Of a stretch of 64,000 nt of DNA, positions 53,919 through 64,000 are shown in pieces. The stretch is from an uncultured Chlorobiota bacterium (GTDB lineage: Bacteria; Bacteroidota; Ignavibacteria; UBA10030; UBA6906): NCBI GenBank assembly GCA_900696645.1, contig CAADGV010000030.1, positions 1 through 64,000 on the forward strand, read 5' to 3'. The position numbers and the translations under genes are program-made. Numbering within the stretch: the stretch's first letter is position 1; each line of letters opens with the position of its first letter. The notes beneath the pieces were generated by a model. It ran no database searches, had not been told where the DNA came from, and was given only the letters and a program-made list of their open reading frames with translations.

Positions 53919-53993
53919 GATGTGAGCTATTACATTACAATAAATAAACAAACGATACGGTACGAACGTTGGAGTAATCGGGGAGATACGAAA

Positions 53994-55448
53994 ATGAAAA
54001 CACTTGCACTTTGTGTAGTATTACTCATTGTTTGTTTCACACCTCAAGTTCTTGCTCAGCCATCTGTTACATGGGTGAACGCATACTATACCGATTGGGA
54101 CTATCAAAGAATGCCCCCGAGCGCTATCGACTTTCGGGGACTGACGAACATCATCTTCATCAATCTCGATCCAATCGGCAGCCCTCCCTACTTTCAATTT
54201 CACTGGCCCGGCCAGCAGGTCTTTGAGGCAACCGCAGCCGATTTGATTGCCCGGGCTCATGCCAACGGCGTCAAAGTACTTCTCGGCCTGGGCGGCGTGT
54301 GGTGCTCCGGCGACTGCGGGGGAAATGCATTCCTCAACCATGCGAATGATCCGGTATGGGTTCACAACTACGTGACCGCCGTTCTCAATTATGCCAGATC
54401 CAAAGGGTATGATGGAGTTTCGCTCGATTGGGAAGGAAGTGTGTTTCGTGAGGGATGGATCCGGCTTACCGACAGTCTCAGGGCCGGACTGAACAGGTGG
54501 AATCCAAGAGGCAAGTTCAGCGCTGCCATTGCCGGCATGATTCAGATGGGTTGGAACAATCCCTACGATATTGCCGCGCTCAACAGGAATATCGACTACA
54601 TCGAATCCATGACGTTCGATCTGAATGGATATTGGAGCGGCGCAAGCGGCTTCAACTCACCGCTGTATGACCCGACTCCTAACTGGCCCGGATACAGAGG
54701 CGATAACGTTCACCAGTCGTCGCTCAACTGGATAGCTCGCGGCGTTGAGCCGGCGAAGTTTGCCACGGGTATTCCATTCTACGGTTTTAAGTGGTGGGGG
54801 ATTACGGCTCCGGGACAGACCGGTTGGTCCAACAGTTATTTTACACGGTATCATTTTGTTCTGCGGGAGGATTTGGGCAAAGGTGTGCTGCGCAGGGATA
54901 CACAGTCGAAGACACCCTGGATCAGCAAAGTGAACGGGCAACTTGGCTCGAACGAAACGGCATACATTGATTACCACGATTCGCAAGCCGTGACCGAAAA
55001 AGTAAACTATGCCCTCCAGCAGGGGCACGGCGGGATAATGGTTTTCGATCTGAATTCAGGATATCTGGACCCGCAGAACTATCCGAATGTTTCTGACAGA
55101 AATCCGCTGCAAACTGCAATGAGAGTCGCACTGGGGTCGACATCACTTCAACCGCCCGACATACTACCCCGAGGGTTTCTGTTGGAGCAGAACTTTCCGA
55201 ATCCCTTCAATCCAACAACAACAATACGATACGCATTGGCGGAGGATGCAGTTGTTACATTGAAAGTGTACAACATGATCGGGCAGGAAGTTGTAACGTT
55301 GTTGAATGAGCCGAAACAAGCCGGAACGTACGAAGTAACATTCGAGGCGAGGAACAACCGTGGCGATGCACTGACCTCGGGGGTGTATTTTTACGAAATG
55401 AAGGCAGGCGGCTACTCCGAAACAAAGAAGATGGTTCTGCTACAATGA
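53994..55448 (+). CDS. Secreted GH18 chitinase-like glycosidase with type IX C-terminal domain
   Basis: The 484-residue secreted protein has a signal peptide ending VLAQ and a GH18 TIM barrel. The catalytic DxxDxDxE region reads DGVSLDWEG (the terminal Glu is the acid), a substrate strand GVKVLLGLGG precedes it, and a YIESMTFDLNGYW strand follows. The second Asp of DxDxE is Leu here (S-L-D-W-E), which is seen in some GH18 members. The C-terminal 90 residues are a Por domain almost identical to that of the preceding gene. ATG 53994 follows GGGGAGA. The target could be chitin or peptidoglycan-like glycans. Confidence 0.9.
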   Translation: MKTLALCVVLLIVCFTPQVLAQPSVTWVNAYYTDWDYQRMPPSAIDFRGLTNIIFINLDPIGSPPYFQFHWPGQQVFEATAADLIARAHANGVKVLLGLGGVWCSGDCGGNAFLNHANDPVWVHNYVTAVLNYARSKGYDGVSLDWEGSVFREGWIRLTDSLRAGLNRWNPRGKFSAAIAGMIQMGWNNPYDIAALNRNIDYIESMTFDLNGYWSGASGFNSPLYDPTPNWPGYRGDNVHQSSLNWIARGVEPAKFATGIPFYGFKWWGITAPGQTGWSNSYFTRYHFVLREDLGKGVLRRDTQSKTPWISKVNGQLGSNETAYIDYHDSQAVTEKVNYALQQGHGGIMVFDLNSGYLDPQNYPNVSDRNPLQTAMRVALGSTSLQPPDILPRGFLLEQNFPNPFNPTTTIRYALAEDAVVTLKVYNMIGQEVVTLLNEPKQAGTYEVTFEARNNRGDALTSGVYFYEMKAGGYSETKKMVLLQ

Positions 55449-56559: not shown

Positions 56560-58860
56560 TTAAATGTCGAATGCAGGCTCGGATCGTTCGCCCAAGGGGG
56601 ACTCCCGGGGCATTGCCTTTCGCGGCGATTCCTTGGATCGGGAAAGCATGAGATGTGACTGCACATCAAACGCCGGCTCGCCGTTCAGCGGAACCACGCG
56701 TGTGTAGCCGCCGTTCGCATCGAGTACGCGGGTTCCTGCCGTGTCGCGTAAAGCATCATCGAGCGTTTCGCGTTTGATGAATTCGGCCCACACCCGATCC
56801 TCAATAGGGAACATGAGTTCAACGCGCCGGTCGAGGTTGCGTCCCATCAGGTCGGCACTGCTGCAGTAGAGTTCGGGATGTTCATTATTGGAGAAGTAGA
56901 AGACGCGGCTGTGTTCGAGAAATCTGCCAACAATACTGCGTACACGAATATTTTCGCTGACGCCCTTCACGCCGGGACGCAGACAGCAAATTCCCCGCAC
57001 AATAATGTCAATCATCACTCCTGCCTTCGAAGCCTCATACAGCGTTTCGATCATTCTTGTGTCGGTCAGGGCGTTCATTTTCATCAATATCTTTGCGGGC
57101 TTGCCGCTTCGCGCGTGCCCGATCTCCCGCTGAATCAATTCTGTCATTCGGCTTCGCAAGTTCACGGGAGCGACAATCAGCTTCTTGAACTCCTCCTTGT
57201 GCGAAAACCCGGTAAGGAAATTAAACACTTCGGAGGCATCAACGGCAAAGTCGTCTTTGCATGTCAGGTAGCTGATATCGGTGTAGATACGTGCCGTGTC
57301 GGGATTGTAGTTGCCTGTGCCGAGATGAACGTAACGACGAAGCCCGTCCGGTTCTTTGCGTATCACCAGCGCAATTTTGGAATGTGTCTTCAATCCGACC
57401 AATCCGTACACGACGTGAATACCCGCCCGTTCGAGTTTTTTCGCCCAGCCGATGTTGTTTTCCTCGTCGAAGCGGGCTTTCAGTTCCACGAGAACGGCTA
57501 CTTGTTTTCCGCTTTCGGCTGCAAGAATCAACAGCGGAATAAGCGGCGATTCCTTCCCGATTCTGTACAGAGTTTGTTTGATGGCAAGAACATTCGGGTC
57601 GGTTGCCGCAGACCGGATGAACTGCACAACGGGGGCAAACGAATCGTACGGATGATGCAGCACAACATCACCCCGCCTGATCAAGGCAAAGATGTCGTCG
57701 CCCTCTTCTTCATTCAACAAAACGGCCGGATGGTGGGGCGCATCTTTGAGATCGGGACGGGGAAGCTTCAGCAGTTGCATAAGATGGCCGAAACCCAGAG
57801 GCGGCCTGAGATGGTACACATCATCTTGCGTGATGTCCAGATTCTCGGCAAGAATGTCGATAATGCGCTGGGGCATCGTATCTTCCACCTTCAGCCGCAC
57901 AACCGATCCGAAGCGCCGCATCTTGATCGATTCCTCGATCGAATGAATCAAATCCTCCGCTTCATCTTCCTGGATTTCAATGTCGGCGTTGCGCGTAACG
58001 TGAAACGCGTGGGATTCGTTCACCGTCATGCCGGGGAAAAGCAGGCCGAGGTTCTCACGTATCAATTCCTCAAGCCATACAAAACGGTGCGGCGGCCTGT
58101 TGCCGTTCGGAATCTCAACCAGGCGCGGGAGAACATCGGGTACTTTAACACGGGCGAAGCGTTCCTCGCCCTTCGGGTTGCTGACGGAAACTGCAAGGTT
58201 CAGACTCAGATTGGAAATGTACGGGAACGGATGTCCCGGATCGAACGCGAGCGGCGTGAGCACAGGAAAGATTTCCCTGGCAAAATACTCCGCGAGCCGG
58301 GCTTTCTCTTCGGAAGTGATATCCTTCATCTTCAAAAGATGAATTCCGCTTTCCGCAAGCTGCGGATGCAGCTCGTTCCAGAAGAGGCCGGACTTGTCTT
58401 TGAACATGCGCGACGAACGCTCGTGAATTGCTTTAAGCTGTTGAACAGGGACTTTACCGTCGGGCGAAAGTTCCGCAACATCCGCAAGAATCTGTTCCTT
58501 GATGGCAGCGACGCGGATCATGAAGAATTCGTCGAGGTTGGAACTGGTAATTGCGAGAAATTTGGCACGCTCAAGCAAGGGATGGCGCTTGTTCTGTGCT
58601 TCTTCAAAGACGCGTTGATTGAACTCAAGCCAGCTCAATTCGCGGTTGATGTACAACGACGGGTCAAGCGTGGACTGTCCGGGCAATCCCTGATCGGCAG
58701 TGCGGATGGGCTTGCGGCGGCGGATTCGTGATGTTCGTGCGCGGCGGGGTTTGGCCTGACCTTTTGATTCCAGTTGATCCGTGTCCGCCTTCGCCTCGGT
58801 TTTTCGGGTCAAGGTATCCTCGTCCGTGGTTTTTTTTGGCTGATCGCGCTGCTCAAGCAT
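56560..58860 (-). CDS. ppk1: Polyphosphate kinase 1
   Basis: PPK1 polymerises the gamma-phosphate of ATP into inorganic polyphosphate at the membrane. The 766-residue protein has a non-conserved basic and acidic N-terminal extension (about 70 residues) before YINRELSWLEFNQRVFEEA. The middle and catalytic domains show AIKQTLYRIGKESPL, the autophosphorylated His in GLKTHSKIALV, HLGTGNYNPDTARIYTD, and a second-site IVRGICCLRPGV. ATG 58860 is used; TTG 58869 would add three residues. A hairpin stands just before it. Confidence 0.95.
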   Translation of the reverse strand: MLEQRDQPKKTTDEDTLTRKTEAKADTDQLESKGQAKPRRARTSRIRRRKPIRTADQGLPGQSTLDPSLYINRELSWLEFNQRVFEEAQNKRHPLLERAKFLAITSSNLDEFFMIRVAAIKEQILADVAELSPDGKVPVQQLKAIHERSSRMFKDKSGLFWNELHPQLAESGIHLLKMKDITSEEKARLAEYFAREIFPVLTPLAFDPGHPFPYISNLSLNLAVSVSNPKGEERFARVKVPDVLPRLVEIPNGNRPPHRFVWLEELIRENLGLLFPGMTVNESHAFHVTRNADIEIQEDEAEDLIHSIEESIKMRRFGSVVRLKVEDTMPQRIIDILAENLDITQDDVYHLRPPLGFGHLMQLLKLPRPDLKDAPHHPAVLLNEEEGDDIFALIRRGDVVLHHPYDSFAPVVQFIRSAATDPNVLAIKQTLYRIGKESPLIPLLILAAESGKQVAVLVELKARFDEENNIGWAKKLERAGIHVVYGLVGLKTHSKIALVIRKEPDGLRRYVHLGTGNYNPDTARIYTDISYLTCKDDFAVDASEVFNFLTGFSHKEEFKKLIVAPVNLRSRMTELIQREIGHARSGKPAKILMKMNALTDTRMIETLYEASKAGVMIDIIVRGICCLRPGVKGVSENIRVRSIVGRFLEHSRVFYFSNNEHPELYCSSADLMGRNLDRRVELMFPIEDRVWAEFIKRETLDDALRDTAGTRVLDANGGYTRVVPLNGEPAFDVQSHLMLSRSKESPRKAMPRESPLGERSEPAFDI

Positions 58861-58869
58861 GAATAACAA

Positions 58870-59195: not shown

Positions 59196-60056
59196 TTGGC
59201 GCATAAAGTTTTTCTGTTTTTTCTGTTCTTTGTAGCCGGTACCGCAATTATCGTCGTCGGTATCAACGGATTCAGCTATTACACCACCCCCATTCCCCAG
59301 CGGCCCTTTCTTCCCGAATACAACACCATGAAGCCGTCCGGCAACTACAGCCACGGACTCGGAATTATCGGGGCGTCGATGATTACCATCGGGGTTACAA
59401 TGTATTCGACACGCAAACGAGTGAAGAAACTCTGGAATCTTGGCAAGCTTTCGCGCTGGCTGGAAGTTCACATCTTTCTCTGTTTGCTGGGTCCTATTCT
59501 CGTTGTGTTTCATACCACGTTCAAAGCGGGCGGCATTGCTGCGATCAGTTTGTGGTGTATGGTTTCGGTTGCGGCCAGCGGCATCATCGGCAGGTTTCTC
59601 TATGTACAGATTCCGCGCAACCTCAAGGGGAGTGAATTAACCCGGCAGGAAATCAACAACGAACTGGACAGACTTCGAGACGAGATTGCGCATTCCCCTC
59701 TTGGCATTCAGTTGGTAAACAAGATAGATGAGAGCTTTTTGGCAATTCCGAAACCCGAAAAGCTGCTGGAAATGTTCGGGCTACTAATTCGTCTACAAAA
59801 CACGAGACGCCAGGTGAAACACGCTGTTCGTGAAATGATTGCCAAAAGCAGAATGACGGGGGAACAGACCCGCTCACTCTACAAACTTGCCTCCGCCCGA
59901 ACAACGCTCGTTCAAAAAACAGTACTGCTTGCCCAAGTTGAGAAGTTGTTTTTCTACTGGCATGCGATTCACCTACCGTTTACCGTCATCATGTTCATTA
60001 CGCTGGCCGCTCATGTTTCGGTAACTGTGCTGCTCGGATACCGCTGGATTTTTTGA
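59196..60056 (+). CDS. Dihaem cytochrome-b-like inner-membrane protein
   Basis: The 286-residue membrane protein has about five helices (4-24, 52-70, 88-108, 114-134, 252-280). Two helices carry histidine pairs in the same spacing: H92-x13-H106 and H259-x13-H273, the classical layout for two b haems stacked across a four-helix bundle. The region between (about 140-250) is a soluble helical domain. The start is TTG 59196, fixed by AAAGGAG 5 bases upstream. It is immediately followed by two multihaem cytochromes c, so it is the likely quinol oxidase or membrane step of an electron conduit. No named family was recognised. Confidence 0.78.
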   Translation: MAHKVFLFFLFFVAGTAIIVVGINGFSYYTTPIPQRPFLPEYNTMKPSGNYSHGLGIIGASMITIGVTMYSTRKRVKKLWNLGKLSRWLEVHIFLCLLGPILVVFHTTFKAGGIAAISLWCMVSVAASGIIGRFLYVQIPRNLKGSELTRQEINNELDRLRDEIAHSPLGIQLVNKIDESFLAIPKPEKLLEMFGLLIRLQNTRRQVKHAVREMIAKSRMTGEQTRSLYKLASARTTLVQKTVLLAQVEKLFFYWHAIHLPFTVIMFITLAAHVSVTVLLGYRWIF

Positions 60057-60059
60057 GTG

Positions 60060-61706
60060 ATGAGGATGAAGGAAATAGTCCCGCTGCTGATTTGCCTGAT
60101 GTTGCGGGGAAATATCTATGCCCAGTTCTCGCCGGGCGAGCTCTCCCGCGTCCACATGCAGCTTGAAGGAATCAAGACCTGTCTTCAGTGCCATGAAACA
60201 GGAAAGGAAATCAGCGGGCAGAAATGCCTCGCCTGTCATCAGGAAATCAAGTCAGCAATCGATGCGAAGCGCGGGTATCACTTCAGAGTTGCTGCGCAAC
60301 AATGCGTGGCGTGTCACAAGGAACATCTCGGCCGTGATGCGAAAACGATTCAGTTCGACAAGAATACGTTCGATCATGCGCAGACAGGTTTCAACCGGAC
60401 GGGGAAGCATGCAACAATTCGGTGCGAGGATTGCCATTCCATAAAGAATATCAAGGACCCGCACATTCTTGCACTCGTAAAGGAAACCGGACGGGAGACG
60501 TATCTTGGGCTTTCTCAATCCTGTTCCGATTGCCACACTGACAGGCATAATGCCACAGTAGGCAAGGAATGTCAGGGCTGTCATACAACAACGGCCTGGC
60601 GGCCGGCCACGTCTTTCGATCATTCGAAGACAGAGTTTACACTAAGAGGCACTCACACCAAAGTAGCGTGTATTAAATGCCACACCGATCTTGAAGCAAG
60701 AGAAAAGGAGAAGCCCATTCTTTTCTCAACAAAGCCATTTTCTGACTGCGCCCCCTGCCATCGTTCGTCCCACAGTGTCGAATTTGCAGGAAAGCAAGCT
60801 TGCAGTTCCTGTCATTCGGAAGAGGGTTGGACAAGTGCGCGGGCAAGCACCAAGTTCAACCATGATCTGACACCTTTCCGTTTAATAGGAAAACATGCGA
60901 CTGTTCAATGCGAAAAATGCCACAAATCGACGGCAATTTCGATTCCCGGTCAACGGCTGAAGTTGGCACACAATACGTGTCGTGATTGTCATACAGATTA
61001 TCACAAGGGGGAATTTGCGGCGAGGTTCGAGAGCAAGTGTGAAACGTGCCATACGCCCTTCGGATTCCGGCCGGCAACATATACCATTGCCGCTCACAGC
61101 ACAGCCCGCTTTCCATTGACAGGAGCCCATGTGGCGACACCCTGCGAGAAATGTCACGTGTCAGGGAATGACGGGAGGAAGATCTTTCGGGTTGCGAATA
61201 TCCAATGCGACGGATGCCACAGAGATGTGCACAACGGGCAGTTTGCGTTTGAAATGAAGGGGCAGAGCTGCGCCGCGTGTCATTCAACGGAAGACTGGTT
61301 TCCCAATAAATTCGATCACTCAAAAACAGATTTCGTCCTTGTTGGCAAGCATGCGAAGACGAAGTGTGCAAGCTGTCACAAACCCGTCAGGATCGGAAAT
61401 GCAGAGGTTGCTCAATTCAAGAATACGTCTTCAAAATGCGAATCGTGCCACAAGGAAGTCCACACGAAACAGTTTGCGAAGAGCGGTGAGACAGACTGCG
61501 CAAGTTGTCATGAGCCGTCAGGATGGAAGTCACCGGTATTCGACCACAATACACAAAGTTCGTTTGCACTGACGGGCGCGCACTCGCGTGTGGATTGCCG
61601 TCAGTGTCATCAGGAGGAACAGAGTAGCTTCGGGAGATTTGTTCGCTACAAGCCACTATCAACGAAATGCGAATCATGTCATGCGCAAGGGAGTATCAGG
61701 CAATGA
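60060..61706 (+). CDS. Exported 20-haem cytochrome c
   Basis: The 548-residue exported protein has a signal peptide (VPLLICLMLRGNIYAQ) and 20 CxxCH haem-binding motifs by my count. Recurring segments such as FDHSKTEFTLRGTHTKVACIKCH-type units combine an F-x-H start, an F-x-L-x-G-x-H middle and a CxxCH, so extra His ligands alternate with haem sites. There is no membrane segment beyond the signal. GTG 60057, ATG 60060 and ATG 60066 are possible starts; the gene begins right at the preceding stop. Its own stop overlaps the next cytochrome (ATGA). It should carry electrons through the periplasm. Confidence 0.93.
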   Translation: MRMKEIVPLLICLMLRGNIYAQFSPGELSRVHMQLEGIKTCLQCHETGKEISGQKCLACHQEIKSAIDAKRGYHFRVAAQQCVACHKEHLGRDAKTIQFDKNTFDHAQTGFNRTGKHATIRCEDCHSIKNIKDPHILALVKETGRETYLGLSQSCSDCHTDRHNATVGKECQGCHTTTAWRPATSFDHSKTEFTLRGTHTKVACIKCHTDLEAREKEKPILFSTKPFSDCAPCHRSSHSVEFAGKQACSSCHSEEGWTSARASTKFNHDLTPFRLIGKHATVQCEKCHKSTAISIPGQRLKLAHNTCRDCHTDYHKGEFAARFESKCETCHTPFGFRPATYTIAAHSTARFPLTGAHVATPCEKCHVSGNDGRKIFRVANIQCDGCHRDVHNGQFAFEMKGQSCAACHSTEDWFPNKFDHSKTDFVLVGKHAKTKCASCHKPVRIGNAEVAQFKNTSSKCESCHKEVHTKQFAKSGETDCASCHEPSGWKSPVFDHNTQSSFALTGAHSRVDCRQCHQEEQSSFGRFVRYKPLSTKCESCHAQGSIRQ

Positions 61707-64000
61707 CTAAATCCTTGAACCGCACTGAAAGCAGCCTTACGGCCAATGTATCAGGATGGATATGCAGGAGTACCAGACTGTTCCTTTATCTTAGTATTCT
61801 CACGTCGGTTTTTCTGGGAGTTGAGAAGGGTGTAGCACAGGAATCGCCCCACGGCAAGATCCGGTTCGAATGCAAGACATGCCACACAACGGAAACGTGG
61901 AAAATAAAGGAAGGCGGTATATTCAACCACGAAGCAACCGGTTTTGCATTGACAGGGCAGCACACGTCGTTGCAGTGTGTATCATGTCATCAGGGCCTGA
62001 AGTTTCCCAAGAAGTCATCAGACTGCCTGTCATGTCACACGGATGTCCATAAGAGTGAGATGGGAAACAACTGCTTGCGATGTCATACGACGCAATCATG
62101 GAAGATTGCCGACATGGTGCAGAGACATCAATCAACCCGATTCCCGCTTCTCGGCAAGCACTCGACGTTACCTTGCCAAACATGCCACACCAATGCTGCC
62201 CGGAAACAGTTTGCAGGAACACCGACCGATTGCTTTGGCTGTCATCAGGAGGATTTTACGACGGCTCGATCTCCGAATCATGTTACTTCGGGATTCTCCA
62301 CGGATTGCATGCAGTGCCACGACGTCACAGCGTTCAGGTGGGGAGCGGGATTCCAGCACGAACTGACGCGATTTCCTCTCACAGGGGCGCATGTCGCGGC
62401 ATCGTGCTTTGCCTGTCACAAGAATCAAGTCTTCAAATCAACACCAACAGTATGTGTATCCTGCCATCAGACCGAGTATACATCGACGGCGAATCCGAAC
62501 CATGCAGCGGCCCGCTTTGCGACTGAATGCCAGACGTGCCATACCACATCACGATGGCCGGGAGTCGCGTACAATCACGATCAAACGCGATTCCCGCTGG
62601 TCGGTGCTCATCGCAATCAGCAGTGCAGGGATTGCCATGCTGACAACGTATTTTGGGGAAAGCCAACGGATTGTCTCTCATGCCACCGCACGCAGTTCAA
62701 TTCCGCACAAAACCCGAACCATGTTGCAGGCAGCTTCCCGACGGATTGTCAGCTGTGTCATACGTCGAACGCGTGGAGTCCCGCGCAGTTTGACCATAAC
62801 GCGACACAATTTCCGTTAACAGGGCGGCATGGCAGCACGCAATGCCAGGCGTGTCACATCAACAACAACTACCAGCTTACATACACGAATTGTTACGAGT
62901 GCCATCAAGCGAACTACAATCTGCCGGCAAATCCGCGGCATGTGACACCGAGTTTCGCCCTTGACTGCACGCCGTGTCATTCAACGTCGGCGTGGTCGCC
63001 GTCATCGTTTACTCATAGTGCGACGAGTTTTCCGCTTACAGGGCGTCACGTGAGTACGTTGTGCAACCAGTGCCACGTGAATAATGTGTATCAGAATTTG
63101 CCCGGAACATGCTATGATTGCCATTCAAACAATTATCTTGCGACGACAGATCCGAACCACGTGCAGCGGAATTTCAGCCATGATTGTACGCAGTGCCATT
63201 CAACCAATGGCTGGGATGGCGCGTCGTTTGACCACAATACCACGAACTTTCCTTTGACGGGCAGGCACCTTTCTACACAATGCGCGCAATGTCACATCAA
63301 CGGCAACTATCAGCTTGTGTACACAAACTGCTATCCGTGCCACACAACACAGTACGCTCAACCACAGAACCCGAACCACGTTCTTGGAAACTTCAATCAT
63401 GACTGCGTGCCGTGCCACACGACTACGGCGTGGATGCCATCAACATTCAGTCATTCGACTACACCGTTCCCGCTGGTTGGGGCCCATCAATCTGTGTCGT
63501 GCAATCAATGTCACGTCAACAACCAATATCAGGGGCTTCCGAACACATGCTGGGATTGCCATGCCACGACGTTCAACAACACAACAAATCCGAATCATCA
63601 GCAGGGGCAATTCAGTCACGATTGCTTCCAATGCCATACGCAGTCTGCATGGCAGCCCGCATCATTCAATCATTCAACAACTAATTTTCCGCTGACTGGC
63701 CGGCATCTGACGGCACAATGCCAGCAGTGCCATATAAACGGTAATTATCAGCTTGTGTATACGAATTGCTATCCTTGCCATGCAACGCAATACGCTATTC
63801 CGACAAACCCGAATCACGTCACGCTCCAATTCGGCCACGATTGTACGCCGTGCCATACACAGTCGGCGTGGCTTCCGTCAACCTACAACCACGATCAGCA
63901 ATACTTCAGGATTTACTCCGGGAAGCATCGAAACAAGTGGACGAGTTGCTCGCAATGCCACCCGTCGATCGGGCAATATCAGAACTTCACGTGCATCAGT
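61703..64000 (+). CDS. Giant multihaem cytochrome c, at least 29 haems (3' truncated)
   Basis: ATG 61703 overlaps the previous stop, and the frame stays open for 766 codons to the window end. A signal peptide (core LFLYLSILTSVFLG, cleavage GVAQ) leads to at least 29 complete CxxCH motifs. A thirtieth is cut: the last codons read C-I-S. From 62303 the protein is a tandem repeat of 73 residues (one unit 74), each with three haem motifs and the pattern DCxxCH, W, FxHxxTxFPLTGxH, CxxCH, YQL, CYxCH, NPNH. The extra histidines offer bis-His ligation. It is likely an outer-surface electron wire, exported via Sec. Confidence 0.95.
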   Translation, partial: MTKSLNRTESSLTANVSGWICRSTRLFLYLSILTSVFLGVEKGVAQESPHGKIRFECKTCHTTETWKIKEGGIFNHEATGFALTGQHTSLQCVSCHQGLKFPKKSSDCLSCHTDVHKSEMGNNCLRCHTTQSWKIADMVQRHQSTRFPLLGKHSTLPCQTCHTNAARKQFAGTPTDCFGCHQEDFTTARSPNHVTSGFSTDCMQCHDVTAFRWGAGFQHELTRFPLTGAHVAASCFACHKNQVFKSTPTVCVSCHQTEYTSTANPNHAAARFATECQTCHTTSRWPGVAYNHDQTRFPLVGAHRNQQCRDCHADNVFWGKPTDCLSCHRTQFNSAQNPNHVAGSFPTDCQLCHTSNAWSPAQFDHNATQFPLTGRHGSTQCQACHINNNYQLTYTNCYECHQANYNLPANPRHVTPSFALDCTPCHSTSAWSPSSFTHSATSFPLTGRHVSTLCNQCHVNNVYQNLPGTCYDCHSNNYLATTDPNHVQRNFSHDCTQCHSTNGWDGASFDHNTTNFPLTGRHLSTQCAQCHINGNYQLVYTNCYPCHTTQYAQPQNPNHVLGNFNHDCVPCHTTTAWMPSTFSHSTTPFPLVGAHQSVSCNQCHVNNQYQGLPNTCWDCHATTFNNTTNPNHQQGQFSHDCFQCHTQSAWQPASFNHSTTNFPLTGRHLTAQCQQCHINGNYQLVYTNCYPCHATQYAIPTNPNHVTLQFGHDCTPCHTQSAWLPSTYNHDQQYFRIYSGKHRNKWTSCSQCHPSIGQYQNFTCIS
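62303..64000 (+). repeat. Tandem 219-bp triheme coding repeats
   Basis: The first haem codon of each unit begins at 62303, 62525, 62744, 62963, 63182, 63401, 63620 and 63839 (Asp or Glu before CxxCH). Steps are 222, then six times exactly 219 bases. Later units are the most alike at DNA level (for example 63182 and 63620 onward). The array continues past the window. Confidence 0.95.

What the first reader, a model, noticed from the sequence alone, without database searches (positions are those of the whole stretch)
62303..64000. Exact 73-residue triheme repeats in a giant cytochrome
Eight units, six steps of exactly 219 bases, each with three CxxCH and conserved non-haem histidines (FxH, GxH, NPNH). 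The regular step and the bis-His supply suggest a stacked linear haem wire whose length can grow or shrink by unit recombination.
Basis: partly seen in the sequence, partly recalled or inferred. Interest (0 to 1): 0.85.

Follow-up and report, generated by a model that had tools for sequence, protein, structure and literature searches.

The report
Adjustable-length haem wire, triheme units
A bacterium of the Ignavibacteria carries a five-gene set for moving electrons through its cell wall; the outermost protein is a chain of equal-length three-haem blocks whose number differs between species in whole blocks, while the partner chain inside the wall almost always keeps 20 haems.

Summary
The reading frame (start most likely 61703, stop at 64102, 102 bases past the window) encodes about 800 residues with 31 CxxCH. 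Seven units of exactly 73 residues lie at 62351-63883, each with three CxxCH and three further invariant histidines (positions 3, 14, 51). It sits third in an operon: inner-membrane protein (predicted two haem b), 20-haem periplasmic cytochrome, this cytochrome, 22-strand porin, Fe-S flavoprotein. The set matches the published PCC3 porin-cytochrome type, described from Proteobacteria; here it is common in Ignavibacteria and other Bacteroidota, with the flavoprotein as constant fifth member.

Length change by whole units is supported, on a species time scale. The window's units are diverged (46-68% DNA identity), yet a congener carries exactly two more units (438 nt) and the window's last unit is a chimera of that congener's units 7 and 9. 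Two more pairs differ by exactly 219 nt. Across relatives the extracellular haem number is 3n+1 in 52/56 proteins, and 14/15 in a held-out set (range 10-61); the periplasmic partner has 20 or 23. Haem stacking could not be measured. Variable haem numbers in PCC3 were known; the triheme quantum and mapped junction appear new.

The parts
59196..60056 (+). Inner-membrane protein (P0003, 286 aa): five predicted TM helices, two WX3HX13H motifs, SGXXG; predicted two haem b; TTG start behind an AAGGAG site
   Evidence: motifs as published for PCC3 inner-membrane proteins (PMC5566968)
60057..61706 (+). Periplasmic multihaem cytochrome (P0002, 549 aa, 20 CxxCH)
   Evidence: 20 CxxCH kept in 56 of 73 relatives
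61703..64000 (+). Extracellular multihaem cytochrome (P0001; likely start 61703, open frame from 61667; continues to stop at 64102 outside the window; 31 CxxCH)
61871..62350 (+). N-terminal module with 7 CxxCH in irregular spacing, conserved in relatives
62351..63883 (+). Array of seven 73-residue (219-nt) triheme units
63665..63883 (+). Unit 7: chimera of congener G001 units 7 and 9, junction at unit bases 110-117 (about 63775-63782)
63884..64000 (+). Start of the C-terminal cap (three CxxCH in all; its first CxxCH is inside the window, the other two lie at or beyond its end)

Best explanation
The array is the extracellular arm of a PCC3-type porin-cytochrome conduit. Electrons pass between the inner membrane (two-haem-b protein, with an Fe-S flavoprotein on the cytoplasmic side), a 20-haem periplasmic cytochrome, a porin of 22 strands, and this 31-haem outer chain, which ends in a cap. 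Most likely the flow is outward, to minerals, humics, electrodes or other cells. Each 73-residue unit is a self-sufficient triheme segment (three CxxCH, three distal histidines), so units can be added or lost whole without breaking the frame or the ligand set; over species time the outer chain has changed length in triheme steps while the periplasmic chain stayed nearly fixed. Shown here: gene set, ligand pattern, whole-unit indels, 3n+1 rule. Inferred: localisation, linear stacking, direction of flow, use.
For: Gene set and order, with overlapping genes, kept in relatives and on a named plasmid of Emticicia oligotrophica. Inner-membrane protein motifs exactly as published for PCC3 (PMC5566968). 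Porin ortholog folds as a 22-strand barrel, pLDDT 88, Z about 20 to 22-strand barrels. Ligand pattern invariant. 438-nt indel with chimeric unit: 62 of 71 informative sites in one-junction order, none of 100,000 shuffles as good; chimera identity 90% against 77% and 79%. 219-nt indels in two other pairs. Haems 3n+1 in 52/56 and 14/15 held out, including single-contig genomes. dN/dS 0.075 for this gene.
Against: No protein of this set has been tested here or, as far as found, anywhere in Bacteroidota. Homology to the proteobacterial PCC3 proteins was not tested directly. The four-unit model has pTM 0.47 and no PDB match. In Sideroxydans lithotrophicus PCC3 genes go down on Fe(II) (PMC8788666), so the electron partner of the type is unknown. 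The relatives are mostly metagenome assemblies, in which repeats can collapse, although the window's units are too diverged for that and complete genomes obey the same rule.
Confidence: 0.82

Rival explanations
1. The conduit works inward: it takes electrons from Fe(II), minerals or a cathode and the flavoprotein passes them to NAD(P)+ or ferredoxin.
For: PCC3 was first proposed in Fe(II) oxidisers (PMC5566968); the constant Fe-S flavoprotein could reduce NAD(P)+; direction in such conduits is often reversible.
Against: Ignavibacteria are reported as anode-biofilm members and iron reducers (PMC7399161); PCC3 is down on Fe(II) in ES-1. No test for autotrophy was made here.
Confidence: 0.25
2. 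The outer chain is mainly a charge store (capacitor) or a sticky, redox-active surface protein, and haem number has little to do with reach.
For: Haem number varies from 10 to 61 with the same partners, which a strict length requirement would not allow.
Against: The constant one-to-one ligand supply and unit length argue for a constant geometry along the chain. Storage and conduction do not exclude each other.
Confidence: 0.15
3. Unit-number differences are assembly artefacts of repeats in short-read data.
For: Most relatives are metagenome assemblies; a few arrays have units above 90% identical.
Against: In the window's gene the units have no exact run over 14 nt and the unit 7/9 pair of the congener no in-register run over 12 nt, far below assembly word length. 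Single-contig genomes show 22, 28, 37 and 43 haems, obeying the same rule.
Confidence: 0.04
4. The chain polymerises into a free extracellular filament like the OmcS-type nanowires, rather than being one arm of a porin complex.
For: Haem-dense, repetitive, predicted extracellular; some Bacteroidetes relatives repeat the whole body-plus-cap module in one chain.
Against: Porin and periplasmic partner are next door wherever the contig is long enough, as in porin-bound systems; OmcS-type wires polymerise small subunits non-covalently (own knowledge), here the repeat is covalent.
Confidence: 0.08

Closest known systems
PCC3 porin-cytochrome clusters (He et al. 2017, PMC5566968; Gallionellaceae survey PMC10734462)
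   Same: Porin, very haem-rich extracellular and periplasmic cytochromes (published medians 34 and 21; here 31 and 20), about 300-residue inner-membrane protein with two WX3HX13H and SGXXG, residues per haem 26-27 (published median 26), repeated units, variable extracellular haem number.
   Different: Bacteroidota rather than Proteobacteria; constant fifth gene for an Fe-S flavoprotein not described for PCC3 in the text read; 22-strand porin with an N-terminal beta domain against porins of up to 42 predicted strands; periplasmic haems 20/23 (3n+2) against 21/24/27 (3n).
24- and 49-haem cytochromes of Burkholderiales (PMC7399161)
   Different: There no unit length, quantum or junction was given.
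MtrCAB / MtoAB
   Same: Works like it: porin-sheathed cytochrome plus outer cytochrome; weak sequence likeness of both cytochromes to the decahaem DmsE/MtrA model.
   Different: Ten haems each; the likeness is well below the model's cut-off (28 and 47 bits against 192).
OmbB-OmaB-OmcB (Geobacter Pcc; also in Ignavibacterium album, PMC4245776)
   Same: Porin plus periplasmic plus outer cytochrome.
   Different: 8- and 12-haem cytochromes in Geobacter; the periplasmic one of Ignavibacterium album has 14 haems; far fewer haems than here.

Membership tests
PCC3 | Outer-membrane beta-barrel porin gene in the cluster | tested here: met
   Ortholog in congener locus L073 predicted as 22-strand barrel, pLDDT 88, Z about 20; the window genome's own P0004 is its homolog
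PCC3 | Periplasmic multihaem cytochrome with about 21 haems | tested here: met
   P0002, 20 CxxCH; its location is inferred
PCC3 | Extracellular multihaem cytochrome with very many haems and repeats | tested here: met
   P0001, 31 CxxCH, seven 73-residue repeats; that it is extracellular is inferred
PCC3 | About 300-residue inner-membrane protein, five TM helices, SGXXG on TM4, WX3HX13H on TM3 and TM5 | tested here: met
   WX3HX13H at 88 and 255, SGIIG at 128, five hydrophobic stretches at threshold 1.2; the four histidines and SGXXG are invariant in 14 rows
PCC3 | Sequence homology to the proteobacterial PCC3 proteins (e.g. Slit_0867-0870) | not testable with these tools
   No proteobacterial PCC3 record could be fetched; the one distant plasmid hit (Methylophaga) is another kind of locus
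MtrA/DmsE decahaem family (TIGR03508) | Score above the curated cut-off | tested here: not met
   28.4 and 46.7 bits against 192.2
c7-type triheme nanowire domain (TIGR04257) | Score above the curated cut-off | tested here: not met
   11.7 bits against 40
Cytochrome_C7 (PF14522) | Score above the curated cut-off | tested here: met
   110.3 bits against 24.8, 11 stretches; a loose CxxCH-rich family
OmcS-type cytochrome filaments | Polymerisation of subunits into a filament | not testable with these tools
   needs electron microscopy

The most novel reading that the evidence does not exclude
In Bacteroidota, PCC3-type conduits have a nearly fixed periplasmic haem chain (20, less often 23) and an extracellular chain whose length is set by evolution in whole triheme units (haems = 3n+1, 10 to 61) through unequal recombination or slippage between units: a natural length series of one conductor.
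Probability: 0.65. Interest if true: 0.65.

Novelty: new variant of a known kind. Interest (0 to 1): 0.55.

Why it matters
Whether long multihaem proteins conduct as uniform wires, and what limits their length, is an open question in extracellular electron transfer. Here nature supplies related chains from 10 to 61 haems built from the same unit, with the same partners, so reach, conductance and charge storage can be compared against unit number directly. The nearly fixed inner partner suggests (an inference) that periplasm width, not conduction, sets its length. The result also extends PCC3 to a phylum not named in the PCC3 papers found.

Tried and rejected
(1) Current instability of the window's array: not supported, no DNA tandem repeat and no exact run over 14 nt. 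(2) A 371-residue difference between L105 and L137 first looked like a five-unit gain; the DNA alignment points to a 1-nt frameshift near the end of L105, so it was dropped. The absence of a match says nothing about the fold. (4) Sequence search of PDB: single sequence none; profile gives only weak CxxCH-driven matches to other multihaem cytochromes, best a sixteen-haem cytochrome, E 3.5e-11. (5) The Methylophaga plasmid hit is not a PCC3 cluster. (6) A search from a proteobacterial centre was not possible. (8) Promoter and terminator scans gave no more sites than shuffles. (9) Porin fold search: MtrB-type porins are not among the rows shown; this excludes nothing.

Full report
What is there. 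The frame that holds the array runs from 61667 (likely start 61703, where its ATG overlaps the stop of the gene before) past the window to a stop at 64102. It encodes 31 CxxCH. After a signal-like N-terminus and a module of seven CxxCH with irregular spacing come seven units of exactly 73 residues at 62351-63883, then a cap with three more CxxCH. In every unit the three CxxCH start at positions 19, 35 and 60, and three other histidines, at 3, 14 and 51, are invariant; a fourth, at 58, occurs in four units. Twenty of 73 positions are invariant among the seven. In 46 four-unit segments, 42 from relatives at 38-67% identity, the same histidines stay. Three haems and three spare histidines per unit is what bis-histidine ligation needs. 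Which histidine serves which haem is not shown.

Repeats are old in the window's own gene. Units share 46-68% of bases, with no exact run over 14 nt, and no DNA tandem repeat is reported. Units 3, 5 and 7 resemble each other most (64-78% of residues), and 4 and 6 resemble each other (60%), so the later half is built of alternating pairs of 146 residues.

Surroundings. On the same strand, overlapping or nearly so, lie: a 286-residue inner-membrane protein (59196-60056), a 20-CxxCH cytochrome (60057-61706), the 31-CxxCH cytochrome, and, beyond the window, a 531-residue barrel protein and a 439-residue protein with two 4Fe-4S motifs and a pyridine-nucleotide flavoprotein domain. The inner-membrane protein has five hydrophobic stretches, WX3HX13H at 88 and 255 and SGXXG at 128; He et al. 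2017 give exactly these as the marks of PCC3 and PCC4 inner-membrane proteins, and take the four histidines to bind two haem b (PMC5566968). The barrel protein was modelled through its ortholog in a congener (locus L073): pLDDT 88, an N-terminal beta domain and 22 long strands, with Z about 20 to 22-strand outer-membrane barrels (a shared barrel shows no function).

Relatives. The inner-membrane protein is found in 38 of 80 close genomes and, at E 1e-69 or better, in 40 places of a 392-genome sample of the phylum. A scan of 84,980 species genomes found 495 relatives, of which the best 80 are Ignavibacteria and other Bacteroidota. In those 80 the flavoprotein gene is present in 72; the eight others are mostly short or cut contigs. 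Gene order is IMP-cytochromes-porin-flavoprotein or IMP-flavoprotein-cytochromes-porin. A named example is plasmid pEMTOL02 of Emticicia oligotrophica, with a 23- and a 40-haem cytochrome. The window's genome holds only this one array.

Haem numbers. Among complete proteins in the 80 named loci the first cytochrome has 20 CxxCH in 56 of 73 and 23 in 11; the few others include wrongly assigned genes. The second has 10 to 61 haem motifs (CX2-4CH), equal to 3n+1 in 52 of 56 (a third expected by chance, nominal binomial tail 1e-20, too small because the proteins are related). On 20 further loci taken afterwards, duplicates removed, the rule held in 14 of 15 and the first cytochrome had 20 in 14 of 17; four come from single-contig genomes, with 28, 37, 43 and 22 haems.

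Unit gain and loss. The congener G001 (inner-membrane protein 95% identical, dS about 0.5-0.7) has nine units. Apart from small gaps near the N-terminus, the only indel against the window's gene is 438 nt, exactly two units. Units 1-6 match one to one at 83-90% DNA identity; the window's unit 7 matches G001 unit 7 at 77% and unit 9 at 79%, but a chimera, first half from 7 and second half from 9 with a junction at unit bases 110-117, matches at 90%; 62 of 71 informative sites follow that order, never reached in 100,000 shuffles. The last unit of a third congener (11 units) resembles G001 unit 9 in its first half too, so the likely event is a two-unit deletion in the window's lineage. Pairs L042/L043 and L056/L063 differ by exactly 219 nt. 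In other relatives neighbouring units are 91-97% identical in DNA, a sign of recent gain or homogenisation. The gene is under purifying selection (dN/dS 0.075).

Structure. A four-unit model has pLDDT 81 but pTM 0.47, no PDB match, and no coordinates are released. Stacking is therefore inferred from 24 residues per haem in the array and from published PCC3 models that appear long and mostly linear (PMC10734462).

How it most likely works. Electrons from the quinone pool or from the flavoprotein enter the haem-b protein, pass along the 20-haem periplasmic chain, through the porin, and out along the 31-haem chain. Direction is inferred: Ignavibacteria are known from anodes and iron reduction (PMC7399161), but PCC3 was proposed for Fe(II) oxidation, and in ES-1 it goes down on Fe(II) (PMC8788666); in Sideroxydans CL21 its expression does not follow iron oxidation except for one inner-membrane gene (PMC12442390).

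What was known. PCC3, its huge haem numbers, its repeats and the wire idea (PMC5566968); variable outer cytochromes of 10-35 haems and periplasmic ones of 21, 24 and 27 in Gallionellaceae (PMC10734462); [quoted passage not shown] No paper in the held library names PCC3 together with Bacteroidota. What seems new: the PCC3-like set with a constant flavoprotein in Bacteroidota, the 3n+1 rule against a nearly fixed inner partner, and a mapped unit junction.

Noticed in passing
L068:4016-16020 (G000 contig C32, about 90000-102000): A second, distant relative of the inner-membrane protein (25% identity) with a 10-CxxCH cytochrome, a 1225-residue LVIVD-repeat protein with 10 CxxCH, and a 763-residue flavoprotein with FHA and 2Fe-2S domains; a similar set in congener G001 and in G056, partly in G014 and G006. 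No porin matched.
   Followed up: partly
L137:13801-17544 and L144:9909-13652: In two Bacteroidetes the outer cytochrome (49 CxxCH) repeats the whole body-plus-cap module about four times in one chain, so the cap is not always an end.
   Followed up: partly
window 56560-58869 (-): Polyphosphate kinase gene divergent from and directly upstream of the electron-transfer operon.
   Followed up: no
window 53922-55448 (+): Family 18 glycosyl hydrolase with a type IX secretion sorting tail.
   Followed up: no
L158 (G356 C1:2456000-2470500): A single-contig genome has the inner-membrane protein but no cytochrome gene of seven or more CxxCH in the fetched stretch; a possible orphan.
   Followed up: no
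window 62789-63883: Alternating unit types (3, 5, 7 against 4, 6), a 146-residue higher-order repeat; the three congeners have 7, 9 and 11 units, steps of two.
   Followed up: partly
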